Shown here piece after piece: positions 1,127-25,274 of a stretch of 25,274 nt of DNA. The stretch is from a virus. The DNA lies in IMG/VR virus record IMGVR_UViG_3300023116_000317, positions 1 to 25,274 of that record; one strand, 5' to 3'. Numbering within the stretch: the first letter of the stretch is position 1; each line of letters opens with the position of its first letter. The position numbers and the translations under genes are program-made. The notes under the pieces are model-generated. The model saw nothing but the letters and a program-made list of their open reading frames with translations. It was not told where the DNA came from and made no database searches.

Positions 1127-1158
1127 AGAATCTCCTTTCTAGATAAATGCCGAGGGCG

Positions 1159-1173
1159 TATACTTATAACACA
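1159..1173 (+). promoter_or_regulatory. Candidate phage promoter motif TATACTTATAACACA before portal gene
   Basis: This 15-mer matches 14 of 15 bases with the one at 5343-5357 before the RNA polymerase fusion gene. Both lie 27-29 bases upstream of a start codon in short non-coding DNA at the head of a rightward gene group. It sits within the 5' extension of the portal reading frame, which supports treating 1147-1200 as leader rather than coding. No clear host -35 box is seen. Promoter function is inferred from repetition and position only. Confidence 0.45.
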
Positions 1174-1200
1174 AAAAGCTTGAAATTAGGGGGCTATAAT

Positions 1201-2925
1201 ATGCTCGGAGATATGTTTAACTCCATGAACAATGGGACTAATGGGGTATACGGAGATCCCATGCGTCTCTGGGCTCACTCATTCTCATCTAGGAACTTAA
1301 AGCAGTTATTTAGATGGACAGAGTACCTATACTACAACTCCGCTCAAATATATGCAGGCACTCGAAAGTTTGCAGAGTACCCTATAACAGAGCTAGAGTA
1401 TATGAGTGATAGTGATAAGCTTACTTCACTATATAGAAGATTACTCGAAGATATCGTGGGTATAAAGCGTAATCTGATTAAAGCGTCTATCGATCTTCAG
1501 GTATACGGAAATTCGTTTACTTCACTACACTTACCGTTTAAGAGGCACCTTAAGTGCTCTAAGTGTCAGTTTAAACAAGTAGCTGAAGTAATTGAATATA
1601 AGTACAACCCTAACAATGCTTCTTTTAAGCATACCTGTGGGGACTGTGGGTTTACTGGAGAATCCGTTGTAGTGGATACTCTTCAGATATCCCCTGAGAA
1701 AATAAATATTGTTAGATGGGACCCTAAGCTAATTCAAATAAGCTACAACTCTGTTACTGGAGAATCTGAGTACTACCTACAGATACCTAGTGAACTTAAG
1801 TCTAAAGTTATGGGTGGAGATAAGCACCTGATAACTACTTTACCCAAGCCTATATTAGAGACTATCTCAAATGGCGAGCTGTTTAAGTTCAATAATGACG
1901 AGATATTCCATATGCGGTCAGATGCGCCTGCTGGGGTACAAAGTGGCTGGGGCTACCCACCTTTAGTGGCATGTATGCCACTATTCTACCATGCCAGTGT
2001 ACTACGAAAAGCTAATGAGTCTATAGCGTTAGAGCGCATTGTACCTATGCGTGTAATGCATCCTCAGGCAATTAGCGGGAATGCAGACCCTATTCTCAGC
2101 TTGTCTATGGGTAAGTTCATGGCTGAGGTAGAGGACAACATATCAAAGTGGCGAAGAGATCCTAACCATATAATGATGAGTCCTGTAGCTGTAGGTGTTA
2201 GTCAGGTTGGGGGCGAGGGCAGAGCTCTTATGGTCAACGCTGAGATACAGCAAGCTGAAGATAACATCATAGCTGCTATGGGATTCCCTAAAGAGTTCGT
2301 CTATGGAGGACTTAGCTACACAGGCAGTAGCGTTACCCTGCGTATGTTGGAGAACCAGTTAGAGTCTTCAGTATTTCAAATTACTCAGTTACTTCGATGG
2401 CTTACTAATAAGATGGGTAAGTTTTTAGGATGGGAGCATTGCCAAGTTGGTCTAGGTGACTTCAAGATGATAGACGATGTTTCTCAAAAGCAACTAGTTA
2501 TGCAGCTATTCCAGATGGGTATGGTAAGCAAAACAACAGTCGCTGAGGCGCATGGTATTGATGTAGCTGAAGAGCGCGAAAAGATTAAACAAGAAAACCT
2601 TACAGATGCTAGATTCCAGAAGGAGCTTGAGCTAGATATGATGGATCTCCAGAAAGACCTTAGCCAGCAAGCCCGTCAGATGTCTGCTGAGCAGGGTGGC
2701 GGAGGCCTTGCTTATGATCAGCAAGCTGTTATCGGTCAAGCAGAGCAGATAGCTGGGCAGATGATGCAAATGGATCCCGGTTCACGTAAGTCGCAACTTG
2801 CTAGCCTTCAGGCAGAAGATTATGTTATGTACTCTGTTGTTATTCAGAGACTTGAGCAAATGCAGCTAGACCAAAAGAATCAGGCTATGCAGCAAATGCA
2901 AGGTCAAATGGGACCCCCAATGTGA
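1201..2925 (+). CDS. Portal protein with inserted zinc ribbon
   Basis: 574 residues from ATG at 1201. This start is chosen over the in-frame ATG at 1147 because it has a strong SD (TTAGGGGG, seven bases upstream) and the 54-base extension contains a promoter-like motif. The protein resembles dodecameric portals that form the vertex for DNA packaging and tail attachment. It has an alpha/beta core with a clip/stem-like middle and a long Gln/Met-rich C-terminal tail (from about residue 475) rich in QQ and QM pairs. A zinc ribbon is visible as CSKC at 119-122 and CGDC at 146-149. The segment FVYGGLSYTGSSVTLRMLEN (around 365-385) resembles the conserved crown-side helix of portals. It is the first gene of a rightward group, followed eight bases later by a small protein. 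The portal call rests on overall pattern and head-gene context, without a database search. Confidence 0.72.
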   Translation: MLGDMFNSMNNGTNGVYGDPMRLWAHSFSSRNLKQLFRWTEYLYYNSAQIYAGTRKFAEYPITELEYMSDSDKLTSLYRRLLEDIVGIKRNLIKASIDLQVYGNSFTSLHLPFKRHLKCSKCQFKQVAEVIEYKYNPNNASFKHTCGDCGFTGESVVVDTLQISPEKINIVRWDPKLIQISYNSVTGESEYYLQIPSELKSKVMGGDKHLITTLPKPILETISNGELFKFNNDEIFHMRSDAPAGVQSGWGYPPLVACMPLFYHASVLRKANESIALERIVPMRVMHPQAISGNADPILSLSMGKFMAEVEDNISKWRRDPNHIMMSPVAVGVSQVGGEGRALMVNAEIQQAEDNIIAAMGFPKEFVYGGLSYTGSSVTLRMLENQLESSVFQITQLLRWLTNKMGKFLGWEHCQVGLGDFKMIDDVSQKQLVMQLFQMGMVSKTTVAEAHGIDVAEEREKIKQENLTDARFQKELELDMMDLQKDLSQQARQMSAEQGGGGLAYDQQAVIGQAEQIAGQMMQMDPGSRKSQLASLQAEDYVMYSVVIQRLEQMQLDQKNQAMQQMQGQMGPPM

Positions 2926-3428: not shown

Positions 3429-3934
3429 AGACGTTGCCCTTTCCGACGGTGGTAACCGTTGCGGTTGTGAGCCTTAGTGAGCTTAGCTAGCTCATCAGGG
3501 TTCACGAATCCGCTACGGAGATCAACGATCTTTTGCCCCGTCCCTTTAATAGTTCGTACAGGTCCAGCCATGCGCAAGTGGTCAGGGTCAAATTCCCTAT
3601 CACCAATGTACATTGTGCCGTTCCCATCTATACCTCTCCAAGGTCCAGTGTGGGGCCTTCCTCCATAAGGGAATACCTTTGTAGGTCGGCCATAATGTGG
3701 ACACTTAGAACGACTAGCTATCAGGTACCCAATACCAAGTCCTAATAGCCCCGCCAGCAAATAAATATCAGCGCCGGCGGCTAGGATAAATGCCTGGCCA
3801 TCTACAGAAGTTTCACCTGACCATGAGTCACCGTATGTATTATCCTTGGCCGCTCGGACCAGGGACGGGTGAACTCTTACCAGGCAACGCTTATCTGGAT
3901 GCCAGTACCAGTCATGTGGATACTTGTTCTGAAT
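3425..3934 (-). CDS. Single-pass membrane protein, probable ATT start
   Basis: A 169-residue frame that has no ATG. The first TTG (3760) lies inside the hydrophobic segment and lacks an SD. The upstream in-frame stop (TAA at 3951-3949) is immediately followed by AAAGGAGG (3948-3941), and six bases later by ATT at 3934-3932, an ideal SD distance, so ATT is taken as the start. The N-terminal part is hydrophilic with aromatic residues (HDWYWHPDK). One transmembrane helix spans about residues 48-73 (ILAAGADIYLLAGLLGLGIG), followed by a basic, Gly/Pro-rich tail with CPHYGRP and a His/Arg/Lys-rich end. The start overlaps the 3' end of the upstream leftward gene by 23 bases. A +1 frameshift from that gene is a less likely alternative. 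Family unknown. Confidence 0.6.
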   Translation of the reverse strand: MQNKYPHDWYWHPDKRCLVRVHPSLVRAAKDNTYGDSWSGETSVDGQAFILAAGADIYLLAGLLGLGIGYLIASRSKCPHYGRPTKVFPYGGRPHTGPWRGIDGNGTMYIGDREFDPDHLRMAGPVRTIKGTGQKIVDLRSGFVNPDELAKLTKAHNRNGYHRRKGQRL

Positions 3935-5255
3935 CCGCCACCTCCTTTAGCCTAACCGTTGTTTCCCCGCTAAGTCCAGGGTGGTACATAACCTGCAAGA
4001 TCCAGTCGTCTCTCGTAGCATACGACTCTACGGGCTCTAGAGGCAGCACGGGCTGACCATCCTCCTGCAACCAGTCGAAGATTGGCCACAGGTCCTCCAA
4101 GCCATTCTCCGTGGGGTTTGCAAAGTCTACAAATAGCTCTGTACACTGAGCCAGTGATAGCTCAGTGCGCATGCTATGCGTACTCTTAACCCAGTCTGCT
4201 ACCCTGTTAAAGACCTCGGACGAGTATTCCGAGAATAGCTTACCTACCGCCTCCTTGGCTGGCTTGCCCGCCCTAACTAAGCCGAATACCATACTCACCT
4301 CGGGTGAGATCTGATCGTAAGCTGCTTTAGCCTCTACTCTTGCCGCCTCCCAGGCGGCCACTAGGTCTGGACGTGTGGTAATCACGTCAGACCACTCTGC
4401 AGCGAGGCGGGCTTGGCGCTCGGCCTCAAGGCGCTCGGCCTCGATGCGCTCGGCCTCCTCACGAGCCTTCTTAGCCTCAGCTATAACTGACCCAAAGACG
4501 TCGAATGCCTCCGCGGCAGCCTTAGCCTCGGCCTTAGCTTTCGCATCAGCTTTCGCTTTGCGAGCTGACTCGGCCTTCTCGGCCTCAGTGGGCTTAGCCC
4601 ACTGCTTAACTCCTGTCTTGAGCAGTGCGCTCATGAAAGAAGTTAGCTCGAGATCGTGTTTACCTCGCTTGACCAGCACAAGACCTTGGTGGCCCAACAT
4701 AGCCCCAGCAGGGATATCGAGGTGATCTCCGTCTTGGTTCGGAGTCAGTGAGATCCCATCTATCTCGAAGGATGACTCCACTAACTCACCCATACGGGCC
4801 GCACGATCCGCGTTAGGCTTACGTGCGATCGTAAACCCGACCTCGAATCCCACAGTAGGATCGAGACCAGCCTTACGAGCAGCGTCGCTAACGGACCAAC
4901 GCGCCTCTCCCCAGCCGAGATCCGGCTTAGGCTCTGACTTAGGCTTGAAGTTAGCCTGCATCAAGAGCTGCGCTTGCTCTTGTAACTTGCGGTGACTCTC
5001 AGGCGTTGGCTTGCCCTCAGAGTCAACCTCTAGTACAAATCCTGCATCAAGAAGATCGCGGTTCTTCTTTACCAGGATATCTATACCCCTAAAGGCACGA
5101 GAGCGCACCTCCAGGAAGTTTTGCTTAGCCGTCTGCTCGAGGGACTCAAACGTCGCCTTAGAGCCAACTGCTGATAACTTCTCCTGCAGGCTCTTCTTAG
5201 CCTTAGGAGTCGTAGGCGCCTTATGCGCCTTAACTGTTTTCTTTTTCTTTGCCAT
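3912..5255 (-). CDS. Lys/Ala/Glu-rich coiled-coil protein of unknown function
   Basis: 447 residues, ATG at 5255 after SD GAAAGGA. A very basic N-terminus (KKKKTVKAHK, continuing with Lys/Pro to about residue 22) precedes a folded region of roughly 170 residues containing VGFEVGFTIARKP and DHLDIPAGAMLG. Then comes a long charged helix of A/K/E repeats at about 220-295 (AKADAKAKAEAKAAAEA, then EAERIEAERLEAERQ), probably a coiled coil. A C-terminal alpha-helical domain with several Trp follows. No catalytic motif was recognised. The gene is markedly richer in G+C than its neighbours: 42 of 60 bases in 4381-4440 against 20 of 60 in 6661-6720. It heads a leftward cassette inserted between rightward late genes, as in a moron-type acquisition. 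A nucleic-acid-binding role is possible from the basic tail but unproven. Confidence 0.85.
   Translation of the reverse strand: MAKKKKTVKAHKAPTTPKAKKSLQEKLSAVGSKATFESLEQTAKQNFLEVRSRAFRGIDILVKKNRDLLDAGFVLEVDSEGKPTPESHRKLQEQAQLLMQANFKPKSEPKPDLGWGEARWSVSDAARKAGLDPTVGFEVGFTIARKPNADRAARMGELVESSFEIDGISLTPNQDGDHLDIPAGAMLGHQGLVLVKRGKHDLELTSFMSALLKTGVKQWAKPTEAEKAESARKAKADAKAKAEAKAAAEAFDVFGSVIAEAKKAREEAERIEAERLEAERQARLAAEWSDVITTRPDLVAAWEAARVEAKAAYDQISPEVSMVFGLVRAGKPAKEAVGKLFSEYSSEVFNRVADWVKSTHSMRTELSLAQCTELFVDFANPTENGLEDLWPIFDWLQEDGQPVLPLEPVESYATRDDWILQVMYHPGLSGETTVRLKEVADSEQVST
3941..3948 (-). promoter_or_regulatory. Strong SD that decides an ATT start
   Basis: AAAGGAGG on the minus strand lies within the last codons of the leftward coiled-coil gene. 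The spacer TGGCGG places ATT at 3934-3932 in the initiation position. No ATG, GTG or TTG in the frame of the downstream membrane protein is near it. Confidence 0.55.
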
Positions 5256-5386: not shown

Positions 5387-8300
5387 ATGGCAAATAATAT
5401 AAGACCATTGTTTACCACCCCTGAAGAGCGCCAGCGACTTCTGCGAGAGAAAACTCTAGAGGGTGTAGCTAGTCTTTTCCCAATAATAGGTACGCATCAC
5501 ACCATTGAAGCCGAAGATTTCAAGGTAAAAGAAACTACAGCTACTTATGCAGACCATAAGAAAGCCTTATTCAAGGGTGGTTCCTTATATGAGCCTATAA
5601 AAGCTAACTTAGTAGTTAAAGATAAGCAGGGAAACGTAGTATCTCGTAAGAAAAACCATACTGTTATGCACCTGCCCAGGGTTACTAATAACAACACTTT
5701 TGTAGTAGGTGGTAACGAGTACGCACTTAAGCATCAGCTTAGAACTCGTCCTGGGGTTTACACACGTAAACGAGGTAGTGATGAGCTAGAGTCTAGCTTT
5801 AACCTTTCTAAGGGGGCTAACTTTAGACTTAGTATGAATGCCACTAAGGGTGGTCTACAGATGGAGTATGGCAGCTCTAAGATACCCATGTACCCTATAC
5901 TTAAGGAGATGGGTGTTCAAGATAGCGACATGTCTAAGTACTGGGGTAAGGAACTTACTGACAGGAATAGAGACATGTATGCTAGATCTGCTAGCTCTGC
6001 TGTAGATAAGCTATATACAAAAATAGTTCCTAAAGCTGAGCAGGTTCACTCAGGACGCAAAGATAAAGCCGCAGCTATTCTTAGAGCCTATGATAATACA
6101 CAGTTAGATGAAGAAACTACACGCTCTACTCTTAAGAAGAGTTTTAACAAGGTAACTCCGGAAGCTCTTCTAACAGCTAGCCAAAAGCTAGTTAAAGTCT
6201 ACAAAGGCGAGGAGAAAGAAGACGAGCGTGACTCTTTAGAGTTCCAGAAAGTAGTTGGCCCTGAAGATATATTTAAAGAAAGGCTACAGCTAAAAGCTAG
6301 AGAGATTCAGTGGAAGATTCGCAATAAGCTAGACCTTAGTCCTAACGTAAATATTAGTAAGGTGATGCCTACTACAGCTACTAGCAATGAGCTTAAGAAG
6401 TTCTTGTCTACAGCACAGTTAGCTAGCTTACCTTCTCAGATAAATCCCGTAGAAATTATGGATAGTGCTATGGCGGTAACCCGCCTAGGTGAGGGAGGTA
6501 TTTCTAGTGATAGAGCGGTTCCTGCGTCCGCTCGTAAATTACATAGCTCTATGCTTGGTATAATCGACGCCTTTAGAACTCCCGAATCGGGTAACGTGGG
6601 TATAGATCAGAGGTTTACTCTGGGTGCTGCGAGAGACGATGAAGGTAACTTATACAGCAAGCTAATGGATGCTAAGACAGATAAAGAAACTTTTGTAAAA
6701 GCTAAAGACATAGCCAACAAAGTTGTAGCATTTGCTAACCAAGACATTAAATCTGGTAACGTAGACGCAATGGTTAAGGGTAAGGTAGGGAAAGTTAAGC
6801 CTAAAGAAGTAGACTATTACGTGGGAAGACACGTAAACATGAATACTATTAATACTAACTTAGTACCATTATTAGATAGTACACAGGGTAACCGCGTTAT
6901 AATGGGTGCTAAGATGGTTGGGCAAGCTATGCCTCTCCTATATAGAGAGAAGCCTCTTGTACAGTCGGGCGCGTTCCTAGATAGAGAAGATGAACACTCT
7001 TCGATGGAACACATAATTGGTAGGTCTAGTACTTCGGGTATGGCTGCACCTGTATCCGGTGTAGTTAAAAAGGTAACTAAAGACTACATAGAAATTGATG
7101 GAGGTAAGGATGGACTACGTAAAGTAGAAATACCCTCCAACATGCCTCTTGCTTCTAAGACGTTTTTAGACGGACATGTACGCGTAAAAGAGGGGGATAA
7201 GGTTAAAAAAGATGAGCTTATAATGGACACTAACTTTACCAAAGATGGTACACTTGCCCTAGGAAAAAACCTAAAGGTGGGTTACTTAGCTTATCATGGG
7301 TTAAACTCTAATGACGCAGTGGTTATGAGCAAGGGTGCTACAAAAAAGATGGCCTCTATCAACATGACTAAGTATGTGATAGAAGAGGATCGAGATACCA
7401 GGATAGACGGAGGCAAGCACTCAGCTAACTTCCCACGAGTGTTTACAAAAGACCAGTATGGCTTACTCGATAAGGGCATAGTTAAAGTCGGCACCAAACT
7501 TAAGCAGGGAGACCCCATAGCAGCTGTGTTGAGAAAGCGAACTCCTTCTATAGAGAACCAAATACTTGGAAAGGTACACAAGTCGCTTAGGCAAGAGTAC
7601 TCAGATGCTAGTGATACCTGGGATAAATCTTCTGAAGGTGAAGTTGTAGCCGTAGAAAAAGAGGGTAAGCGCACTACTATAGTAGTTAAAAGTGTAGAGC
7701 CCCTAAAGATAGGCGATAAAGTAAGTAACCGTTATGGCGGTAAGGGCGTAATAAGTAAGATAGTAGATGATGATAATATGGTCCAAGATGAGTCTGGTAA
7801 GCCTATAGATATACTATGGAGTTCGCTAGGTGTGGTTAGCCGTATTAATCCATCTCAGGTAATAGAAACAGCCGCGGCCAAAGTAGCAGAGAAAACTGGT
7901 AAGCCTATTGCCATACCCTCTTTTAAGAAGCGCAATAACGTTAAGTGGGTCAGAGACTTAATGAAGAAAAATGGGGTCAAAGACAAAGAAACTGTCTATG
8001 ACCCTATTACAGGTAAGAAGATACCTAACATAATGGTAGGACCTCAGTATACCTACAAACTATTCAAGTCTTCTGATACTAACTATGCGGCTAGAGGCTT
8101 AGATGGCGGGTATGATCTTCATGATGCTCCTAGTAAAGGAGGTATTACGGGTGCTAAGGGCACGGGAACAATGGAGATTAATGCATTACTAGCCCATGAT
8201 GCTCGTGACATGTTAAAAGAAAACGCCATATTAAAAGGCACTCGTAATACAGAGTACTGGCGGGCAATGCAGCTAGGTAGACCTCTACCTCCTCCTAAAT

Positions 8301-9748
8301 CTAGTTTTGCCTTTGACAAGTTTAAGGGCATGCTTGCGGGCGCCGGTCTTAGGTTTAAAAAGACTGGTAACGATATGACTCTTAGCCCTATGACTGATAA
8401 GGAAGTTAGGGACATGTCTAACGGTGAGATACAAAACGGCAGGATGGTTCTCGCTAAAAACTTAAAGAGTGAAACGGGTGGGTTATTTGACGTAGGTAAG
8501 ACGGGAGGAGTTATAGGAACTAAGTGGACTCATATTGAGCTACCCGAGCCCGTAGTAAACCCCCTATTCGAAGACGCATCTCGTAGATTACTAGGTCTTA
8601 CAGCAAATCAGTTAACTGAGGAACTGGCTAACAAGGGCGGAGATCATATAAAGAATAAACTTAATTCTATTGATATTGACTCTAGGATGGAGCAGCTCAA
8701 GTCTGAGATAGGTAAGAAAAAAGGAGCAGACAAAGATAACCATTATAAGCAAATTAGGGCCTTAGGTGCTCTTAAAGAAAATGGTCTTAAAGCTGGAGAT
8801 GCCTATACCATGAAAGCTTTTCCGGTGCTACCACCAAAGCTAAGACCCATAGTTCCTGGAGCTAAAGGTGATCTTTTAATTTCCGATATTAACCACGTCT
8901 ATAAAGATCTTATCCTTGCAAAAGACAAGTTAAAAGAAGCACAGGATCTAGGTTTACCCGATAGTGATATAGCAGATATGCGTAAGCATGTAAGTGATGC
9001 CGCAGGTGCCGTCATTGGTGTTAGACCTCCAGTATCTAGTGCACTAGCAGCAAAGCAAGTCAAGGGTATAGTTAATACCATAACAGGTACTAAGACAGGC
9101 TTCTTTAATGGTAAGGTTATATCTAGACGCCTAGACTTTACAGGGCGTGGTACAGCTGCTCCCGATCCTAGTCTTGGTATGGACGAAGTAGGTCTCCCAG
9201 AGGAGATGATGTGGTCTATGTATTCTCCTTTTGTTATCAAAAACTTAGTAAAGAGAGGTCATTCGGCTATTCGTGCTAAGGAGATGGTAGAGAATAAAGC
9301 TAGTCAGGCCCGAGAAGAGATGATGGTAGAAGCTAATCGTAGACCGGTTATACTTAATAGAGCCCCCTCTCTCCATAGGTTTAATATGATAGCTTTCAAC
9401 CCCAAACCTGTAGCAGGTAAAACTATTCAAGTTAATCCGTTCATGGAGGATGGTATGAACCTGGACTACGATGGTGATGCCTTGCAGGTGCATGTACCTG
9501 TTACTGATGGCGCCGTTAACGATAGTAAGAAGATGCTTCTTTCTAATAACGTACTAGGTGACGCGAATAAGAACACTATACTCGCTTACCCTAAGCAAGA
9601 GGCCATGGCTGGTCTCTATAAGGCAACTACTACCGGGGCTAAAACTTCTACTCAAGTTAAGAAGTTTAAGACAACTAGGGATGCTTTAGCTGCTTATCGT
9701 AGAGGAGAAGTAGGCTCTGCTGATACTGTGGAGATTGAAAATGACTGA
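5387..9748 (+). CDS. RNA polymerase beta + beta'-N fusion (catalytic half)
   Basis: 1453 residues covering nearly all of bacterial-type beta and the first part of beta'. Beta landmarks in order: TFVVGGNEYALKHQLRTRPG (about 104-123); the rifampicin-pocket segment AQLASLPSQINPVEI (343-357); GNRVIMGAKMVGQAMPLL (about 500-517); ALGKNLKVGYLAYHGLNSND (about 622-642); GDKVSNRYGGKGVIS (about 776-790), holding the two active-site lysines; and KGTGTMEINALLAHDARDML (about 925-945). The beta C-terminus (SFAFDKFKGMLAGAG, about 973-987) runs straight into beta' (SPMTDKEVRDMSNGEI, from about 1000). Beta' landmarks: LPPKLRPIVPGAKGDLL (about 1148), RRLDFTGRG (about 1247), RPVILNRAPSLHRF (about 1319) and the magnesium-binding NLDYDGD at 1358-1364. 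The beta' N-terminal zinc-binding domain is absent. The frame ends 89 residues after the catalytic loop; the rest of beta' is at 11154-12929. The product is the catalytic half of a phage multisubunit RNA polymerase. Confidence 0.97.
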   Translation: MANNIRPLFTTPEERQRLLREKTLEGVASLFPIIGTHHTIEAEDFKVKETTATYADHKKALFKGGSLYEPIKANLVVKDKQGNVVSRKKNHTVMHLPRVTNNNTFVVGGNEYALKHQLRTRPGVYTRKRGSDELESSFNLSKGANFRLSMNATKGGLQMEYGSSKIPMYPILKEMGVQDSDMSKYWGKELTDRNRDMYARSASSAVDKLYTKIVPKAEQVHSGRKDKAAAILRAYDNTQLDEETTRSTLKKSFNKVTPEALLTASQKLVKVYKGEEKEDERDSLEFQKVVGPEDIFKERLQLKAREIQWKIRNKLDLSPNVNISKVMPTTATSNELKKFLSTAQLASLPSQINPVEIMDSAMAVTRLGEGGISSDRAVPASARKLHSSMLGIIDAFRTPESGNVGIDQRFTLGAARDDEGNLYSKLMDAKTDKETFVKAKDIANKVVAFANQDIKSGNVDAMVKGKVGKVKPKEVDYYVGRHVNMNTINTNLVPLLDSTQGNRVIMGAKMVGQAMPLLYREKPLVQSGAFLDREDEHSSMEHIIGRSSTSGMAAPVSGVVKKVTKDYIEIDGGKDGLRKVEIPSNMPLASKTFLDGHVRVKEGDKVKKDELIMDTNFTKDGTLALGKNLKVGYLAYHGLNSNDAVVMSKGATKKMASINMTKYVIEEDRDTRIDGGKHSANFPRVFTKDQYGLLDKGIVKVGTKLKQGDPIAAVLRKRTPSIENQILGKVHKSLRQEYSDASDTWDKSSEGEVVAVEKEGKRTTIVVKSVEPLKIGDKVSNRYGGKGVISKIVDDDNMVQDESGKPIDILWSSLGVVSRINPSQVIETAAAKVAEKTGKPIAIPSFKKRNNVKWVRDLMKKNGVKDKETVYDPITGKKIPNIMVGPQYTYKLFKSSDTNYAARGLDGGYDLHDAPSKGGITGAKGTGTMEINALLAHDARDMLKENAILKGTRNTEYWRAMQLGRPLPPPKSSFAFDKFKGMLAGAGLRFKKTGNDMTLSPMTDKEVRDMSNGEIQNGRMVLAKNLKSETGGLFDVGKTGGVIGTKWTHIELPEPVVNPLFEDASRRLLGLTANQLTEELANKGGDHIKNKLNSIDIDSRMEQLKSEIGKKKGADKDNHYKQIRALGALKENGLKAGDAYTMKAFPVLPPKLRPIVPGAKGDLLISDINHVYKDLILAKDKLKEAQDLGLPDSDIADMRKHVSDAAGAVIGVRPPVSSALAAKQVKGIVNTITGTKTGFFNGKVISRRLDFTGRGTAAPDPSLGMDEVGLPEEMMWSMYSPFVIKNLVKRGHSAIRAKEMVENKASQAREEMMVEANRRPVILNRAPSLHRFNMIAFNPKPVAGKTIQVNPFMEDGMNLDYDGDALQVHVPVTDGAVNDSKKMLLSNNVLGDANKNTILAYPKQEAMAGLYKATTTGAKTSTQVKKFKTTRDALAAYRRGEVGSADTVEIEND

Positions 9749-9977
9749 TCTAATAAGAGCATATAATCTAGGTAAGGTGCTTGCGCTGCATAAGTTCGCG
9801 GAAGAAACAGACTACAAAGTAGACAGCTTGACTGAGGCTCTAGATTCTTTGCTAGATGGGTCTAGTAAAAAAGATTTAGCTACAAACGTACTAGATAGCT
9901 CTGAGCGAGCTAGTTCTTCTTCCTGGGGCGATAAGATGGAGTTAGAAACTCCAAAGAATACCGGGTTAAATGTATGA
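9741..9977 (+). CDS. Small protein with AYxxGxxxAL N-terminus
   Basis: 78 residues. The ATG at 9741 is preferred over TTG at 9735 because GGAG lies eight bases before it; it overlaps the stop of the polymerase fusion by eight bases, so translation is probably coupled. The N-terminus reads MTDLIRAYNLGKVLALHKFA, then an acidic, Ser-rich remainder with no membrane segment. The AYxxGxxxAL motif recurs in the next gene and, in looser form, at 13687 and 14841. Family unknown. The motif followed by KFA resembles a cleavable capsid-targeting peptide, which would make this an internal head protein, but this is inference. Confidence 0.8.
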   Translation: MTDLIRAYNLGKVLALHKFAEETDYKVDSLTEALDSLLDGSSKKDLATNVLDSSERASSSSWGDKMELETPKNTGLNV

Positions 9978-10822
9978 CTAGTCCTCAAGAACTTAAGCAC
10001 GCCTATGATATAGGTCGCCAGTTAGCTTTATCCGACTACCAAGAAAAAGTAGCCTTTCTTGGCGCCGTAGGTCAAGCAGGTAAGTGGTTGCTTGGTATGG
10101 GTAACTTAGGCGCTAAGGGGTCTACACTAGCAAGGCTCAGCGCTCACCACGTAGGTATGCCCTTAGGATTTGGTTTACTAGGTGCTGCTACAGCCGAAGA
10201 AGGCCAAGGTATGGAAGGGTTTGCAAAGGGACTTGCTGGCGGTTTAGTGTTTAATGCTGCTATGCCTATAGGCGGGTTTCTAGGAAAGAAGTTACTTGCG
10301 CCCGGATTTGGAGGTAAAAACACCCTTGGTCTTATGAAGCGGATGGGCTTTGGAGAGAATGCAGCCAAGGAAATGGCTGCTTCACAGACTCTTAATAAAC
10401 CTTTACATGCAGGTACTGGTTCCTTAGGCAGAAAACTAGAGGCAGGTACTGCTTCATCAGGTCAACTACGTGATTTAAGAACAACTTTCTTAACAACTAC
10501 TAGGGATATACATAGAAACTTAAACCCTGAACTTAAGGCCCAGTTTAACCAGATACGTCAACTACTTAGGAATAAAAATTTAACTGGAGCACAGCAAGCA
10601 GAGCTTAAGAAGCTTTACTCTCAGTTTACTTCTGAACTATATAAAGGCGGGTACAGTACCGGAAGTGGTGCTGCAAGGGCTATGCTAAAGGGAACCCGCT
10701 TTGCTAAGGGACTTGGTACTATGGCCGGAGGAATGGGGCTGGGTATGGCTGCTTCACATCAGGTAGAGGGTATGATGGATACACACCCAGCTTCAGTGTT
10801 TGATGCAAGAGGAGGTCATTGA
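9974..10822 (+). CDS. Glycine-rich, probably membrane-active virion protein
   Basis: 282 residues, ATGA overlap with the preceding stop. The N-terminus has ELKHAYDIGRQLALSDYQEK followed by VAFLG, the same AYxxGxxxAL motif as its neighbour and a K-x-A site. Residues about 28-105 are Gly/Ala/Leu-rich with glycine-zipper spacing (GFGLLGAATAEEG, FAKGLAGGLVF, MPIGGFLGKKLL), suggesting amphipathic or membrane-inserting helices. Residues 155-220 are charged and helical (LRDLRTTFLTTTRDIHRNLN), probably a coiled coil. The C-terminus is again Gly/Met-rich (KGLGTMAGGMGLGMAAS). It lies between the two polymerase pieces. Such proteins are often ejected internal proteins or channel formers; no family was recognised. 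Confidence 0.8.
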   Translation: MTSPQELKHAYDIGRQLALSDYQEKVAFLGAVGQAGKWLLGMGNLGAKGSTLARLSAHHVGMPLGFGLLGAATAEEGQGMEGFAKGLAGGLVFNAAMPIGGFLGKKLLAPGFGGKNTLGLMKRMGFGENAAKEMAASQTLNKPLHAGTGSLGRKLEAGTASSGQLRDLRTTFLTTTRDIHRNLNPELKAQFNQIRQLLRNKNLTGAQQAELKKLYSQFTSELYKGGYSTGSGAARAMLKGTRFAKGLGTMAGGMGLGMAASHQVEGMMDTHPASVFDARGGH

Positions 10823-11136
10823 TGAATACTACTAAAACTGCAGGGCCCAATAAGTTCCTACTAGGCGCAGGATTACTTGGAGGCCTAGGCGCTCTATATG
10901 GCATGGGCGATAATGAGCATAACTATGCAAATGATTTTTTCCATAATTCTACAGGGTCCAGGGCCGCGCAAGGTGCCCTAAGCGGTCTAGCTGGTGTTGG
11001 AGGCTATAAAGTTATGCGTGGATTAGGTAAGGGTAGGGGTGTTGCTGGACTAGCTGCACTATTATCCTCTGCGGGAGCAGCAGCTTTATCAAATCCACAT
11101 CTAAAAGAAGAAAATCCTTATAAGCTACCCTTTTAG
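10822..11136 (+). CDS. Small glycine-zipper protein
   Basis: 104 residues. ATG at 10822 overlaps the previous TGA by one base (TGATG) and has a perfect SD (AGGAGG, six bases upstream), so it is preferred over TTG at 10819. Two hydrophobic glycine-rich stretches are seen: FLLGAGLLGGLGALYGMG (about 12-29), and GALSGLAGVGGYKVM continuing into GLAALLSSAGAAAL (about 52-92). The C-terminus EENPYKLPF is hydrophilic. There is a K-T-A site at residues 5-7 (TTKTAGPNK). Probably a small membrane-interacting virion protein; function unknown. It is the last gene before beta'-C, 17 bases away. Confidence 0.8.
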   Translation: MNTTKTAGPNKFLLGAGLLGGLGALYGMGDNEHNYANDFFHNSTGSRAAQGALSGLAGVGGYKVMRGLGKGRGVAGLAALLSSAGAAALSNPHLKEENPYKLPF

Positions 11137-11153
11137 AAGGGGAGGGGATATTT

Positions 11154-12929
11154 ATGATACGTGGAAGATTAGCGGATATATTAGTTAATGACAGGCTTCC
11201 AAAAGACTACCGTCTACAGGGACAGCTTGACACTAAGATACTAAAGAAAACTATGCTAGGCATGGCCAAAGCTAGTCCAGAAACATACAAAATGGTTATA
11301 CCCAAGATTAAAAAACTTGGAGATGAGTTTTCTACCTTTGAAGGTATAAGTGTTGGGCTAGATGACATAGAGCCCGAATACGCTAAACGAGATCCCATAA
11401 TAAACAACGCTAAGCGAGCACTTCGGTCTGCAGGTTCTAATCACCAGAAAAAAATGTCTATACTCCTAGACACCCAATCTAAGCTTCGAGATCTTACATC
11501 TAAGCACCCAGGTGATATGGGAATGATGGCCCGTTCAGGTAGCCGGGGTAACATGAATCAGCTAATGAAGATGGTATCAAGTCCGGGAATAGTAGGTGAC
11601 TATGATGGCGCCCCAATACCTTTCCTAATTGAGCGGGGTTACTCCGAAGGGTTATCTCCGGCAGAAGCCTGGATAGCAGGAGACGAAAGTAGATCACAGG
11701 TTATTAAAGGTCAGTTGGGTACAGCTGAGCCAGGCGAGATGCAGAAGGTTTTAGCATCTGTTATGAGTGAGCAGGTTATAGCATCAGATGACTGTAAGAC
11801 CTCTAACGGTATAATGTTAGAAGCGGATGACCCTTCAGTAGAGGGTAGATATTCTACCTCAGGAAGTTTAATAGATGGAAGGCAAGCCGCTACTATAGCC
11901 AGAGCTGGTAAGCCTGTTAGAGTTAGGTCCCCTATGACATGCGATTTAGAGAGTGGTGTGTGTCAGAAGTGTATGGGTTCTAGCAATAGAGGAACTAGCT
12001 TTAAGATAGGTATGAATGTGGGTATTAGATCTGCTCAGTCCCTAAGTGAGCCCCTAACTCAGATGGCACTTAGTTCTAAGCATGGAGTATCTCTTGTAGA
12101 GGGGGACCATAACAAACCAAAAGGCCTAGCAGCTTTTAAACAGTTTGTGGAAGTTCCAAAAAACTTTTTTCAAAGAGCACCTATATCTGAAGTTAGCGGT
12201 AGGGTTAACTCAGTGACAAAGGCTCCTCAAGGTGGGTTCGATGTAGATATAGCAGGTAGAGCACACTACATACCCCCAGGACGAGACTTAAAGATTAAAA
12301 AGGGTCAGCGTATTGAGGCAGGGGATGTACTAGGATCAGGTATAGTAGCTCCCGATGATGTGGTAAAACACAAGGGTCTTGGGGCAGGTAGAGAATACTT
12401 AGTTAAATCGCTTAGAGATGTATATAGTGAAAGTGGTAAGCAACTGGATCCTAGGCACTTTGAACTACTAGCAAAGAGCCAGCTTAACTACGTAAAAGTA
12501 AATGGTGGTGTACCAGGATTTGTACCTGGTGACGTAGTTTCTGTATCAAAGATACGTAAAGCATTCGAAGGCAAGGGATCTGAAGTAGCGACTAAAGATA
12601 GCATTGGTAAAGTACTTACTTCAGCACACGGTACTCACTTACCAGGTACTAAGCTTACCAGTAGAGTAGTAGAAGATCTGCAGCGCCAAGGAATAAACAG
12701 GGTAACCGCTACTAGTTCTAATATGCGCATAGAGCCTATAATGGCGGCGGCTACACGAACACCGCTACTAAACCCTAACTGGATGCAGAGACTTGGCTAC
12801 CGCTATCAAAAAGCTACGATTATAAATGCAGCTACTTTCGGTGAGAAGGCAGACTTACATTCGCATAATCCAATACCTGCTCTAGCAGTAGGGCATGAGC
12901 TACGTAGAGATTCTCAAGGAAGGTACTAA
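11154..12929 (+). CDS. RNA polymerase beta' C-terminal part (bridge helix, trigger loop)
   Basis: 591 residues, ATG at 11154 after a G-rich SD (AGGGGAGGGG). It continues beta' where the upstream fusion stops. Funnel region: FEGISVGLDDIEP (about 61-73). F-loop: SGSRGNMNQLMKMVS (127-141). Bridge helix: 163-200, aligning without gaps to the E. coli helix with R180, T190, A191 and G194 kept. Zinc site 2: C214, C263, C270 and C273, all four cysteines present (DDC, then CDLESGVCQKC). Trigger loop: GIRSAQSLSEPLTQMALSSK then H310, with Q303 and H310 kept but the usual Met-Arg replaced by L306 and S307. The C-terminal region RYQKATIINAATFGEKADLH matches the end of beta' that contacts omega and the beta clamp. 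With 5387-9748 this gives a full catalytic core. No alpha, omega or sigma is found in the window. Confidence 0.96.
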   Translation: MIRGRLADILVNDRLPKDYRLQGQLDTKILKKTMLGMAKASPETYKMVIPKIKKLGDEFSTFEGISVGLDDIEPEYAKRDPIINNAKRALRSAGSNHQKKMSILLDTQSKLRDLTSKHPGDMGMMARSGSRGNMNQLMKMVSSPGIVGDYDGAPIPFLIERGYSEGLSPAEAWIAGDESRSQVIKGQLGTAEPGEMQKVLASVMSEQVIASDDCKTSNGIMLEADDPSVEGRYSTSGSLIDGRQAATIARAGKPVRVRSPMTCDLESGVCQKCMGSSNRGTSFKIGMNVGIRSAQSLSEPLTQMALSSKHGVSLVEGDHNKPKGLAAFKQFVEVPKNFFQRAPISEVSGRVNSVTKAPQGGFDVDIAGRAHYIPPGRDLKIKKGQRIEAGDVLGSGIVAPDDVVKHKGLGAGREYLVKSLRDVYSESGKQLDPRHFELLAKSQLNYVKVNGGVPGFVPGDVVSVSKIRKAFEGKGSEVATKDSIGKVLTSAHGTHLPGTKLTSRVVEDLQRQGINRVTATSSNMRIEPIMAAATRTPLLNPNWMQRLGYRYQKATIINAATFGEKADLHSHNPIPALAVGHELRRDSQGRY

Positions 12930-12930
12930 T

Positions 12931-13638
12931 ATGAGCAAAGCAAAAGTATTAAGTGCTGTTTCTAAAGCTTTAGTAGGTGCTGAGAAACTTGCGCCTGAGG
13001 TAGAGGTCGCTGCCAGAAAATTAGTTTCTGACACAGGGAGAATAAATCAGGAAGCTTTAGGTAAGCGCAGGCTGCTGGGGGATCTTCTTATTGGTAAGAA
13101 GGGAGCCTCTCAAGCCTTAAAAGCTAGATATCAGCAAGGAGGTCTTCTAGGTCAGGGAGGTCTTTTAATGGGTGAGTTTGCCCTTGACCCTAGATATAAA
13201 GAGCTAGTAAAAAATTATAGGCAGGCAGGCACTGGCCGCTCAATAATTGATCCTTACTCTGGTCAGAAACTAACAAGGTCAGGTGCTACTAGGAAACTAG
13301 TTACTAAGGGTTTAGAGGAGTCACTTAATCCCTTATTTCTACTAGGATTTCCAGCCATGGACGTAGCTACAGCTATAAATACTCCTGACAGCGATGAGCA
13401 TGGGGGCATGTCCGGAATACTGGGTGCTTTAGCTGGAGGAGCAGGGTTTGCGATTGGCGGACCAATGGGTTTAGTGGGAGGTATGGGTGCTAGCATGTTG
13501 GGTGAGAACATTGGTAAATCTGTAGGAGGACTGTTTGATCCTTCCAAAAGCACCATAAATAATGTGTTACCTAGTCAGCAGGCTGCTCGAGTACCTCGTG
13601 CATCGGACTTAATACTAGACGCCGCTATACCTGCCTAG
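12931..13638 (+). CDS. Glycine-zipper protein downstream of RNAP
   Basis: 235 residues. ATG at 12931 has SD AAGGAAGG seven bases upstream and begins one base after the beta'-C stop codon; the longer in-frame start at 12895 would overlap beta'-C and lacks an SD. The N-terminal 130 residues are charged, with helices (MSKAKVLSAVSKALVGAEKL). Residues about 165-205 form a glycine-rich hydrophobic stretch (GILGALAGGAGFAIGGPMGL, then GGMGASMLGENIGKS) typical of glycine-zipper membrane-spanning or oligomerising helices. The C-terminus is polar. Probably a structural or ejected virion protein, with function unknown. Confidence 0.8.
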   Translation: MSKAKVLSAVSKALVGAEKLAPEVEVAARKLVSDTGRINQEALGKRRLLGDLLIGKKGASQALKARYQQGGLLGQGGLLMGEFALDPRYKELVKNYRQAGTGRSIIDPYSGQKLTRSGATRKLVTKGLEESLNPLFLLGFPAMDVATAINTPDSDEHGGMSGILGALAGGAGFAIGGPMGLVGGMGASMLGENIGKSVGGLFDPSKSTINNVLPSQQAARVPRASDLILDAAIPA

Positions 13639-21046: not shown

Positions 21047-22519
21047 ATGTCTTTAGACAAAATACTAGAATTAGATGAACACTTCAGGGGCACTAGTGGT
21101 CTTGAGCCAACTGTGCAGATTATAGATTTTAATTCTAAAACTTCATCTGTAGCAGAGGAATGGTCTCGCTCTATTACACCAAAAGATGGAAAAACCTATA
21201 TACTTGTCTTGGCGATGGGAGCTAGTGAATTTTACGGCCCCAACCGAAATGGTGATGCTTTTAGAGAATCTGAGCTTAAGAAGACTTACAAGACTTTTGA
21301 GACTGACGCTCATGTCTATAAGTCTCATGTTAACAAAGACCCTCTTAAATCATATGGTCGAGTAGTTAAAGCATTCTATAATGATCAAATGCACCGGATA
21401 GAGTTAGTCTTAGAGATAGACAACCTGAAAGCACCCGACATTGTGGATAAGGTTAACTCAGGGGAGTCTGTAGCTGTATCTATGGGGTGTAAAATAAAGT
21501 TTGATGTGTGCAGTATATGTGGAAATGAGGCTCCTACCCGAGCTCAATACTGCTCACACTTAAAAAATGAGCTAAATAAAATATACCCGGATGGTAGAAT
21601 AGTTTGTGCAGATAACCCAAATCCTAAGTTCTTTGATATATCTATAGTCTGGCGCCCTGCAGACAAAACAGGTTATATGCTAAAGAAAGTTGCTTATACT
21701 AGAGATGTGGGGTCTAGTTCTGCTTGGTTAGCAGAAAAGAATGCGGCTAGAGTAGCTCTAGCTGCATACCTTAGTAAAGCTGCTGATATAGAAAAGTTAG
21801 TCTCAGGTCAAGGTATTAAAGCCCCTGTCGGAAGTACTAGCTCTATAAGCTCAGACACTAGCCTCACTAAGCAGTGGCTTAAAACTGTTGTACCAAAGCT
21901 TAGTAAGTCTTTTATTGAGATTAGTGACCAAGACAAACTAGAGCTTAGTAAGCACTCTTTACCCAAGACTCTAAGCTCTCTGTCAAGTATGGGCCTGTTT
22001 CTGGCTACACCTGAATTCCTAGATCTAGTATACATTAAACTGACTGGATCTAAGGCCCCCCAAGGCTTGGCATCTAAGCTTGTAGAGCTGCAGGGAGATA
22101 TATTCTCTCTACTAGCTAAAAATCCAGAGTTAGCTGAGGATTTAATCTACCAAGGAGTATCCCCTACAGGCTCCGAAGAGCCTGATGAGGGTATCCAGGA
22201 TAAAATGGCTAAATACATACCTTATCGTAGTCTGGACGAAGCGTGGCTGTATTCTGAGCAGCGATCTATGTTTAAACAGTCTTCACTAGGTATTACTCAA
22301 GATGGTTATATTCCTAGAAATAGTGTAGGAAATAACTTTGTAACTAAGATAGCTTCTTACGCCTACGCGGGATATATAGCCAGCTTACTAGATCAGGATG
22401 ATAACACACAGTACACTAAGCTAGCCTCATTGAGAGGTGAGCATAGCTCTGGGGTTAGAAAAGCTACTAGTAGACCTTGGGTAGTACCCACTATACTAGC
22501 TATCAACAGAACAATTTGA
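21047..22519 (+). CDS. Prohead maturation protease
   Basis: 490 residues, ATG at 21047 after a strong SD (GGGGAGGG). The N-terminal 225 residues fit the prohead protease fold shared by HK97-type, T4 gp21-type and herpesvirus assemblin enzymes. H94 in KSHVNKDPLKSYGRV and S145 in SVAVSMGCKI are the likely catalytic His and Ser. A zinc-knuckle-like CSICGNEAPTRAQYCSHL follows the Ser strand. Then come FFDISIVWRPADKTGYMLKK and a K-V-A site near residue 227. The C-terminal half is helical with K-x-A-S sites (TKIAS, TKLAS), suiting self-cleavage of a core-binding tail. It acts inside the procapsid on scaffold, capsid and internal proteins. It precedes the scaffold-like gene, as in many phages. Confidence 0.88.
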   Translation: MSLDKILELDEHFRGTSGLEPTVQIIDFNSKTSSVAEEWSRSITPKDGKTYILVLAMGASEFYGPNRNGDAFRESELKKTYKTFETDAHVYKSHVNKDPLKSYGRVVKAFYNDQMHRIELVLEIDNLKAPDIVDKVNSGESVAVSMGCKIKFDVCSICGNEAPTRAQYCSHLKNELNKIYPDGRIVCADNPNPKFFDISIVWRPADKTGYMLKKVAYTRDVGSSSAWLAEKNAARVALAAYLSKAADIEKLVSGQGIKAPVGSTSSISSDTSLTKQWLKTVVPKLSKSFIEISDQDKLELSKHSLPKTLSSLSSMGLFLATPEFLDLVYIKLTGSKAPQGLASKLVELQGDIFSLLAKNPELAEDLIYQGVSPTGSEEPDEGIQDKMAKYIPYRSLDEAWLYSEQRSMFKQSSLGITQDGYIPRNSVGNNFVTKIASYAYAGYIASLLDQDDNTQYTKLASLRGEHSSGVRKATSRPWVVPTILAINRTI

Positions 22520-24842: not shown

Positions 24843-25274
24843 ATGAATACAGAGCGTGAGCGCCTTAGCGCGCAGTTTATTAATCAGTCATTTGTTCGTA
24901 AGCTAGACGAAGGTCGTGTTAAGGAGGCTGCTGATGAGGGTAGCCGCTTTATCCGCAGCAAGCTCCGCCAGGAGTCCTTTGCTCGTGAGATCCTAGTTCC
25001 TATCGAGCTTAGCCCAGATGAGATCGATCGTGACGAGCACACCGATCAGCCTAAGAAGATCATCGAGAAGGAGCCTGATTCAACGGCTACTTTCGTTACC
25101 TTCAAGGGCGCTGGTCAGCGTACTTTCTTCCGTGGTCCTCGTTACTCAGTCTTCTTCGGTAAGATCGAGTCACAGCACTTCATGAAGTCAAAGTTCGAAC
25201 TTCTTACCTACCAGAACGACATCCGCAAGATCCTAACTGATAACTCAGTTAAGGATATGGCTGACGTCGAGGAC
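24843..25274 (+). CDS. Major capsid protein (partial, 3' end outside window)
   Basis: 144 codons visible, ATG at 24843 with SD AAGGAG. The N-terminal helix runs to EGRVKEAADEGSRFIRSKLR, then FAREILVPIELSPDEIDRDE, a beta segment ATFVTFKGAGQRTFFRGPRY with VFFGKI, and KFELLTYQNDIRKILTDNSV. This is the pattern of an HK97-fold capsid protein: N-arm, E-loop region, then the spine helix. A K-E-A site at about residues 27-29 could be a maturation site removing the N-terminal piece. The codons are clearly more C-ending than elsewhere (ATCCGCAGCAAGCTCCGCC), as expected for the most abundant virion protein. The remainder is off the right edge. Confidence 0.82.
   Translation, partial: MNTERERLSAQFINQSFVRKLDEGRVKEAADEGSRFIRSKLRQESFAREILVPIELSPDEIDRDEHTDQPKKIIEKEPDSTATFVTFKGAGQRTFFRGPRYSVFFGKIESQHFMKSKFELLTYQNDIRKILTDNSVKDMADVED

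What the first reader, a model, noticed from the sequence alone, without database searches (positions are those of the whole stretch)
5387..12929. RNA polymerase built from a beta-beta'N fusion and a separate beta'C
Seen: one frame carries beta and beta' up to 89 residues after NLDYDGD; a second frame 1.4 kb later starts at the beta' funnel and runs to the end. Known: cellular beta-beta' fusions join whole subunits (Helicobacter, Wolbachia), and the phiKZ/AR9-type phages split each subunit. A fused beta/beta' junction together with a split inside beta' is a different arrangement from both. The join at about residues 988-1000 has almost no linker. Inference: an independent phage lineage of multisubunit RNA polymerase, closer to the bacterial enzyme than phiKZ-type enzymes.
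Basis: partly seen in the sequence, partly recalled or inferred. Interest (0 to 1): 0.88.

Follow-up and report, generated by a model that had tools for sequence, protein, structure and literature searches.

The report
Phage RNA polymerase, fused then re-split
A large, mostly uncultured group of bacterial viruses carries its own bacterial-type RNA polymerase whose two big subunits have been welded into one chain and then cut again at a new place; in one cultured relative the enzyme is packed into the virus particle, so it can be tested at the bench.

Summary
ORF 5387-9748 (1453 aa) is RNAP beta joined without a linker to the N-terminal part of beta' (through NLDYDGD); ORF 11154-12929 (591 aa) is the rest of beta'. 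All catalytic elements are present.

It is not unique to this contig and not an assembly break. The same arrangement occurs in cultured Salmonella phage Arash, Vibrio phage D69 (and D148/D181, where a group I intron also cuts beta) and about 80 IMG/VR loci. In 126 distinct nearest viral loci the beta-beta' junction is always fused; 21 are one unbroken chain (about 2000 aa), 84 have the window's beta' split, 21 a second split. Trees place the split forms in one clade, with single-chain forms outside it, so a full beta-beta' fusion most likely came first and beta' was cut later, once.

The cut lies about 17 residues from the cyanobacterial rpoC1/rpoC2 cut and differs from that of phage YerA41. 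Relatives encode a sigma factor but no alpha, and have one such RNAP each. In Arash virions both chains are among the most abundant proteins (published MS). Best reading: a virion-packaged, sigma-dependent, probably alpha-free RNAP. I found no description of the architecture.

The parts
5387..9748 (+). fused RNAP chain: beta (residues 1 to ~998) plus beta'N (~999-1453)
   Evidence: Pfam Rpb2_2/3/6 + Rpb1_1/2; bacterial RNAP in PDB to E 8e-56; AF2 model of residues 254-1453 pLDDT 82
7712..7747 (+). beta catalytic motif GDKVSNRYGGKG with the two active-site lysines (K778, K786)
   Evidence: motif position; invariant; counterpart of the two conserved lysines of phiKZ gp71-73 (PMC8287921)
8348..8389 (+). 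beta/beta' junction, residues 988-1001, a predicted beta-hairpin with no linker
   Evidence: AF2 strands 735-740 and 743-748 of the model, pLDDT 82-87; beta' homology starts at 999
8477..8551 (+). beta' N-terminus where the bacterial zinc finger 1 is missing (GGLFDVGKTGG...THIELPEP)
   Evidence: alignment to Salmonella beta' and other phage beta'
9458..9478 (+). NLDYDGD, Mg2+-binding motif of the beta' double-psi barrel
9974..10822 (+). 282-aa ORF in the gap; Gly-rich hydrophobic protein, homologues in 11 loci, all with the window's split
   Evidence: no Pfam/PHROG family
10819..11136 (+). 105-aa ORF (TTG start) in the gap, homologues in a few close relatives
11154..12929 (+). beta'C chain (funnel, bridge helix, zinc site 2, trigger loop, C-terminus); own ribosome-binding site GGGGAGGGG
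   Evidence: Pfam Rpb1_4/Rpb1_5; AF2 pLDDT 84, VIA Z up to 34.5 to bacterial beta'; upstream bases
11793..11972 (+). zinc site 2 cysteines C214, C263, C270, C273
   Evidence: invariant in 34 sequences
12045..12086 (+). trigger loop SEPLTQMALSSKHG (Q303 and H310 invariant)
1147..2925 (+). portal protein upstream of RNAP (conserved neighbour)
   Evidence: 30% to Arash gp204 portal; homologues in 105 loci including 11 single-chain ones; PHROG portal
21047..22519 (+). head maturation protease
   Evidence: PHROG; 50% over 195 aa to Arash gp222
24843..25274 (+). major capsid protein, cut by the end of the contig
   Evidence: 49% to Arash gp226 major capsid protein over 144 aa

Best explanation
The two ORFs encode the catalytic core of one phage RNA polymerase. 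Chain 1 carries both double-psi barrels, hence the two active-site lysines and the three Mg2+-binding aspartates, in one polypeptide; chain 2 docks onto it and supplies the funnel, bridge helix, trigger loop and zinc site. The enzyme descends from a bacterial-type beta/beta' pair that was first fused whole (single chain about 2000 aa, still found in related phages) and then cut once just after the beta' catalytic barrel. Fusion holds beta and beta' together in cis and probably replaces the alpha dimer as assembly scaffold; a phage sigma factor gives promoter choice. The core is packed in the virion and enters the cell with the DNA to transcribe early genes. Shown here: chain content, conservation, lineage, order of architectures, sigma present and alpha undetected in relatives. 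Published for the relative Arash: virion packaging. Inferred: activity, alpha-independence, use by the window's own phage at early times.
For: Domains and motifs; confident AF2 models matching bacterial beta and beta'. Conserved across 126 distinct viral loci, beta-beta' junction always fused. Tree: split clade 99 (FastTree) and 98 (mixture model), single-chain forms outside, bacteria outgroup with unsplit beta'. Fused lineage 100% apart from other phage RNAPs and bacteria. Sigma region 2 in 14 of 20 long relatives incl. the two nearest with long contigs; alpha families 0 of 20 with 13 of 14 controls positive; one beta' locus per genome. Arash virion MS: gp206 (fused) 128 unique peptides, 3516 spectra; gp216 (beta'C) 1210; sigma gp10 467, about 2.0-2.3 spectra per residue for all three (my division) (PMC10585845). 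Shared gene order portal-RNAP-beta'C-protease-capsid with Arash.
Against: No biochemistry exists. The Arash authors themselves note that abundant enzymes may be carry-over. Arash chains are only 30-34% identical to the window's. The window is a fragment without its sigma gene. Host alpha could be borrowed. In the mixture-model tree the single-chain forms are not firmly resolved as paraphyletic, so single-chain first then cut rests on the outgroup and parsimony as well as on FastTree; an AU test did not finish.
Confidence: 0.8

Rival explanations
1. Split first, re-fused later: the common ancestor had beta-beta'N plus beta'C, and the single-chain phages re-joined beta'.
For: In the mixture tree the single-chain rows could still be one clade.
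Against: Needs one more step, since bacterial beta' is unsplit; FastTree puts single-chain rows on several successive basal branches with starred support; the single chain runs through the cut site without a scar.
Confidence: 0.12
2. The enzyme needs the host alpha dimer (and omega) to assemble, i.e. it is a hybrid of phage beta/beta' and host small subunits.
For: No alpha in the phage genomes, and the beta' C-terminal region near the bacterial omega site is kept.
Against: phiKZ nvRNAP, also without alpha, works without host alpha (PMC8287921); a fusion gives the same proximity that alpha provides; packaging in the virion would require host alpha to be packaged too.
Confidence: 0.25
3. Inheritance of the cyanobacterial (or phiKZ-type) beta' split, i.e. 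the enzyme comes from a cyanobacterium or a phiKZ-like phage.
For: The cut lies in the same region; the same idea was put forward for phiKZ (PMC7598289).
Against: Cut position differs from the cyanobacterial one by about 17 residues; basal members are unsplit; the cyanobacterial row groups with bacteria, not with the phages.
Confidence: 0.05
4. Assembly break or frameshift artefact splitting one beta' gene.
For: Would give two frames.
Against: 1.4 kb with other ORFs between the frames, beta'C has its own start and ribosome-binding site, same layout in many independent contigs and in isolate genomes.
Confidence: 0.01

Closest known systems
Salmonella phage Arash gp206 + gp216 (OQ632216; PMC10585845)
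   Same: Same fused beta-beta'N and separate beta'C, same split, portal/protease/capsid gene order; found in virions
   Different: 33.5% and 30% identity; 4.7 kb gap with other genes; published as beta and beta' without mention of fusion or split in the passages searched
Vibrio phages D69, D148, D181 (OZ195729, OZ196545, OZ196140)
   Same: Same fused/split layout, 31-34% identity
   Different: Annotated hypothetical; D181 has a group I intron and homing endonuclease inside the beta part (D148 gives the same match pattern)
phiKZ/AR9-type jumbo phage RNAPs
   Same: Phage-encoded msRNAP, no alpha, beta' cut after the catalytic barrel, virion form
   Different: beta is also cut (4-5 chains), two RNAPs per phage, no sigma; here beta is whole and fused to beta'N, one RNAP, sigma present
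mReC RNAPs (Weinheimer and Aylward 2020, PMC7481178)
   Same: Deep phage clade sister to bacterial RNAP, from IMG/VR contigs; the single-chain members here may be among them
   Different: The filter demanded NADxDGD (window has NLDYDGD) and their capsids matched Gp23 (0 of 20 relatives here); the text does not discuss fused or cut chains in mReC
YerA41 / Carin-5 phage RNAPs
   Same: Bacterial-type phage RNAP; YerA41 also has beta' cut
   Different: beta separate; YerA41 cut lies further downstream; separate clade
Cellular whole-subunit rpoB-rpoC fusions (Helicobacter, Wolbachia; own knowledge)
   Same: beta C-terminus joined to beta' N-terminus
   Different: No internal beta' cut, bacterial alpha/omega present

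Membership tests
Multisubunit (double-psi-barrel) RNA polymerase | DxDGD in beta' and two lysines in beta barrel, bridge helix/trigger loop | tested here: met
Arash-like phage RNAP group | beta+beta'N fused, beta'C separate, same cut site, next to portal | tested here: met
Arash-like phage RNAP group | RNAP packaged in virion | not testable with these tools
   shown only for Arash (PMC10585845)
phiKZ/AR9-type RNAP | beta split into two or more chains | tested here: not met
   beta is one piece, fused to beta'N
phiKZ/AR9-type RNAP | two RNAPs per genome, no sigma factor | tested here: not met
   one beta' locus per genome and sigma in 14 of 20 long relatives; the window itself is a fragment
phiKZ/AR9-type RNAP | no alpha subunit | tested here: met
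   0 of 20 relatives, controls 13 of 14
mReC | NADxDGD motif in a beta' protein of 800 aa or more | tested here: not met
   window NLDYDGD; 20 of 21 single-chain relatives do meet the motif
mReC | Gp23-type capsid PF07068 | tested here: inconclusive
   0 of 20 records, but no positive control rang
Cyanobacterial rpoC1/rpoC2-type enzyme | beta' cut downstream of the TTPGR segment | tested here: not met
   cut is upstream of TTxGR; offset about 17 residues
Helicobacter/Wolbachia-type whole fusion | complete beta-beta' in one chain | tested here: not met
   met by 21 relatives (e.g. L060, 2015 aa) but not by the window

The most novel reading that the evidence does not exclude
A phage lineage turned the alpha2-beta-beta' core into an alpha-free single-chain RNAP packed in the virion, and its members then cut that chain at successive new points (0, 1, 2 cuts, plus an intron break in one isolate), giving a natural series that shows where a cellular-type RNAP can be joined and cut without loss of function, with fusion replacing the alpha scaffold.
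Probability: 0.5. Interest if true: 0.8.

Novelty: new variant of a known kind. Interest (0 to 1): 0.64.

Why it matters
RNAP core architecture is among the most conserved in biology and normally needs alpha to bring beta and beta' together. A wide phage lineage with a fused core, phage sigma, no detectable alpha and a graded set of cuts offers a two-chain (or one-chain) bacterial-type RNAP to reconstitute, tests whether alpha is only a scaffold, and gives an order of fusion and cutting that bears on the debate whether split phage RNAPs are primitive remnants or derived. A cultured member growing on a Salmonella laboratory strain makes it directly testable.

Tried and rejected
Assembly artefact (rejected by independent contigs and isolate genomes). 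beta' start nearer residue 1085, suggested by HMM start points and by the second-split forms: rejected, since the beta' N-terminal motifs begin at 999 and the second cut is inside beta'. Gap ORFs as relics of a homing endonuclease or intron that made the cut: no conserved relic found by ORF clustering, no Rfam hit in the window. Cyanobacterial origin of the cut. PHROG 24349/25354 as a known phage group: their lengths (1191, 1216) fit Firmicutes rpoB/rpoC and several phage records hit are bacterial DNA (L090, probably L091), so they were not taken as phage relatives. AU test of single-chain monophyly did not finish. Paper searches for a described beta-beta'N plus beta'C enzyme, incl. plastid rpoB-rpoC1 fusion, found none. 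phiKZ/AR9 rows were not added to the trees.

Full report
What is there. The window is a 25,274-base IMG/VR fragment. ORF 5387-9748 (1453 aa) carries beta domains (Rpb2_2, 3, 6) followed by beta' domains Rpb1_1 and Rpb1_2; ORF 11154-12929 (591 aa) carries Rpb1_4 and Rpb1_5. The active-site lysines K778 and K786, the Mg motif NLDYDGD (1358-1364), the zinc site 2 cysteines C214/C263/C270/C273 and trigger-loop Q303/H310 are present. Zinc finger 1 of bacterial beta' is cleanly missing between GGLFDVGKTGG and THIELPEP, as in the other fused phage rows compared. The second chain has its own ribosome-binding site.

Junction and cut. beta' homology begins at residue 999; AF2 (pLDDT 82) predicts a beta-hairpin at 988-1001, so the join is structured rather than a linker. 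The beta'C model (pLDDT 84) aligns its residue 1 with E. coli beta' 569, while cyanobacterial rpoC2 residue 1 aligns with model residue 18. A sequence alignment agrees: this lineage is cut just before the TTxGR segment, cyanobacteria just after it, YerA41 further downstream. The review of jumbo-phage RNAPs says phiKZ-type beta' is cut after the barrel at the cyanobacterial site (PMC7598289); I did not test the exact phiKZ site.

How common. Close relatives at 77-85% identity share the layout. Cultured Salmonella phage Arash and Vibrio phages D69/D148/D181 have it at 30-34% identity. Alignment-based scans of viral contigs gave, after removing duplicates and counting window and isolates, 126 distinct loci; in every one beta and the start of beta' share a frame. 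21 are single chains, 84 have the window's cut (one of these, L161, is only cut by its contig end), 21 a further cut after the first ~95 beta' residues (tallied). The second scan selected on beta'N alone, so it did not favour fusion; more distant phage RNAPs (YerA41, Carin-5, RHph) are not fused.

Order of events. FastTree on 119 phage rows with six bacteria: the forms cut at the barrel end are one clade (98 rows, 99), the doubly cut forms one clade (15 rows, 100) beside Arash/D69, single-chain forms branch outside. A mixture-model tree of 56 rows keeps the cut clade (98) but leaves the single-chain base unresolved. Because bacterial beta' is uncut, fusion first and one later cut is the shortest history either way. 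A beta'-only tree separates this lineage (100) from bacteria and from four other phage RNAPs.

Genome context and function. The window shares with Arash the order portal, RNAP, beta'C, head protease, capsid protein. Long relatives carry sigma region 2 in 14 of 20 records, no alpha, and one beta' locus each. In Arash virions, gp206 is the most detected protein (128 unique peptides, 3516 spectra), gp216 has 1210 and sigma gp10 467 (PMC10585845); divided by length (1525, 606, 234 aa) these give about 2.3, 2.0 and 2.0 spectra per residue, compatible with a 1:1:1 holoenzyme but only rough. The authors note possible carry-over. I infer a virion RNAP delivered with DNA for early transcription. Fusion as a stand-in for alpha is inference; phiKZ shows that an alpha-free phage enzyme is possible (PMC8287921).

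Mobile elements. RNAP genes in this lineage are invaded repeatedly: a group I intron (RF00028, 100.7 bits) with a homing endonuclease in D181, and intein-like inserts at three sites of beta/beta'N, with LAGLIDADG domains in two of those sites. This fits the suggestion that introns helped to split phage RNAP genes (PMC7598289), but no relic remains at the window's cut.

Known or new. The mReC paper describes a deep phage RNAP clade but does not discuss fused or cut chains in it, and its motif filter would exclude the window. The Arash paper names beta and beta' only. Literature searches found no description of this architecture, within a library limited to open-licence papers. I therefore rate it a new variant of phage multisubunit RNAP, well supported in sequence, untested in function.

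Noticed in passing
L011:6521-6801 (Vibrio phage D181): Group I intron (100.7 bits) with homing endonuclease interrupts the beta part of the fused RNAP gene; D148 shows the same match pattern.
   Followed up: partly
L046/L047/L048 (beta ~402), L077/L078 (beta ~780), L140/L144/L149/L153 (beta'N ~375): Intein-like in-frame inserts of about 350-490 aa in the RNAP chains of relatives, LAGLIDADG domain in L078 and L149, the latter just after the Mg-binding motif.
   Followed up: partly
L052:9714-10118; L053:9717-10145: In-frame inserts of about 140 aa in beta; in L052 it is a GNAT acetyltransferase domain, in L053 unrecognised.
   Followed up: partly
L064-L076, L079-L085, L088, L089: Second beta' cut after the first ~95 beta' residues; in L067-L072 the gap holds about 2.9-3.1 kb with several ORFs.
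   Followed up: partly
3912-5255 (-): 447-aa minus-strand ORF between portal and RNAP in a stretch with GC 0.54-0.57 and reversed skew (rest ~0.43); homologues in only 2 loci: probably a recent insertion.
   Followed up: partly
9974-10822, 10819-11136, 12895-13638: Three Gly-rich, hydrophobic-helix proteins flanking beta'C, like membrane-active or ejected virion proteins; no family found except a weak tail-lysin match for the third.
   Followed up: partly
L009 and L262 (Arash gp196 and gp10): Arash encodes two sigma-like factors; gp10 was detected in virions, gp196 is not mentioned in the paper's main text.
   Followed up: partly
L090, L091 (phages collection): Records in the phage collection such as AGRM01000005 (annotated Salmonella rpoBC) and probably several 'Kay' clone records contain bacterial rpoB/rpoC DNA.
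   Followed up: partly
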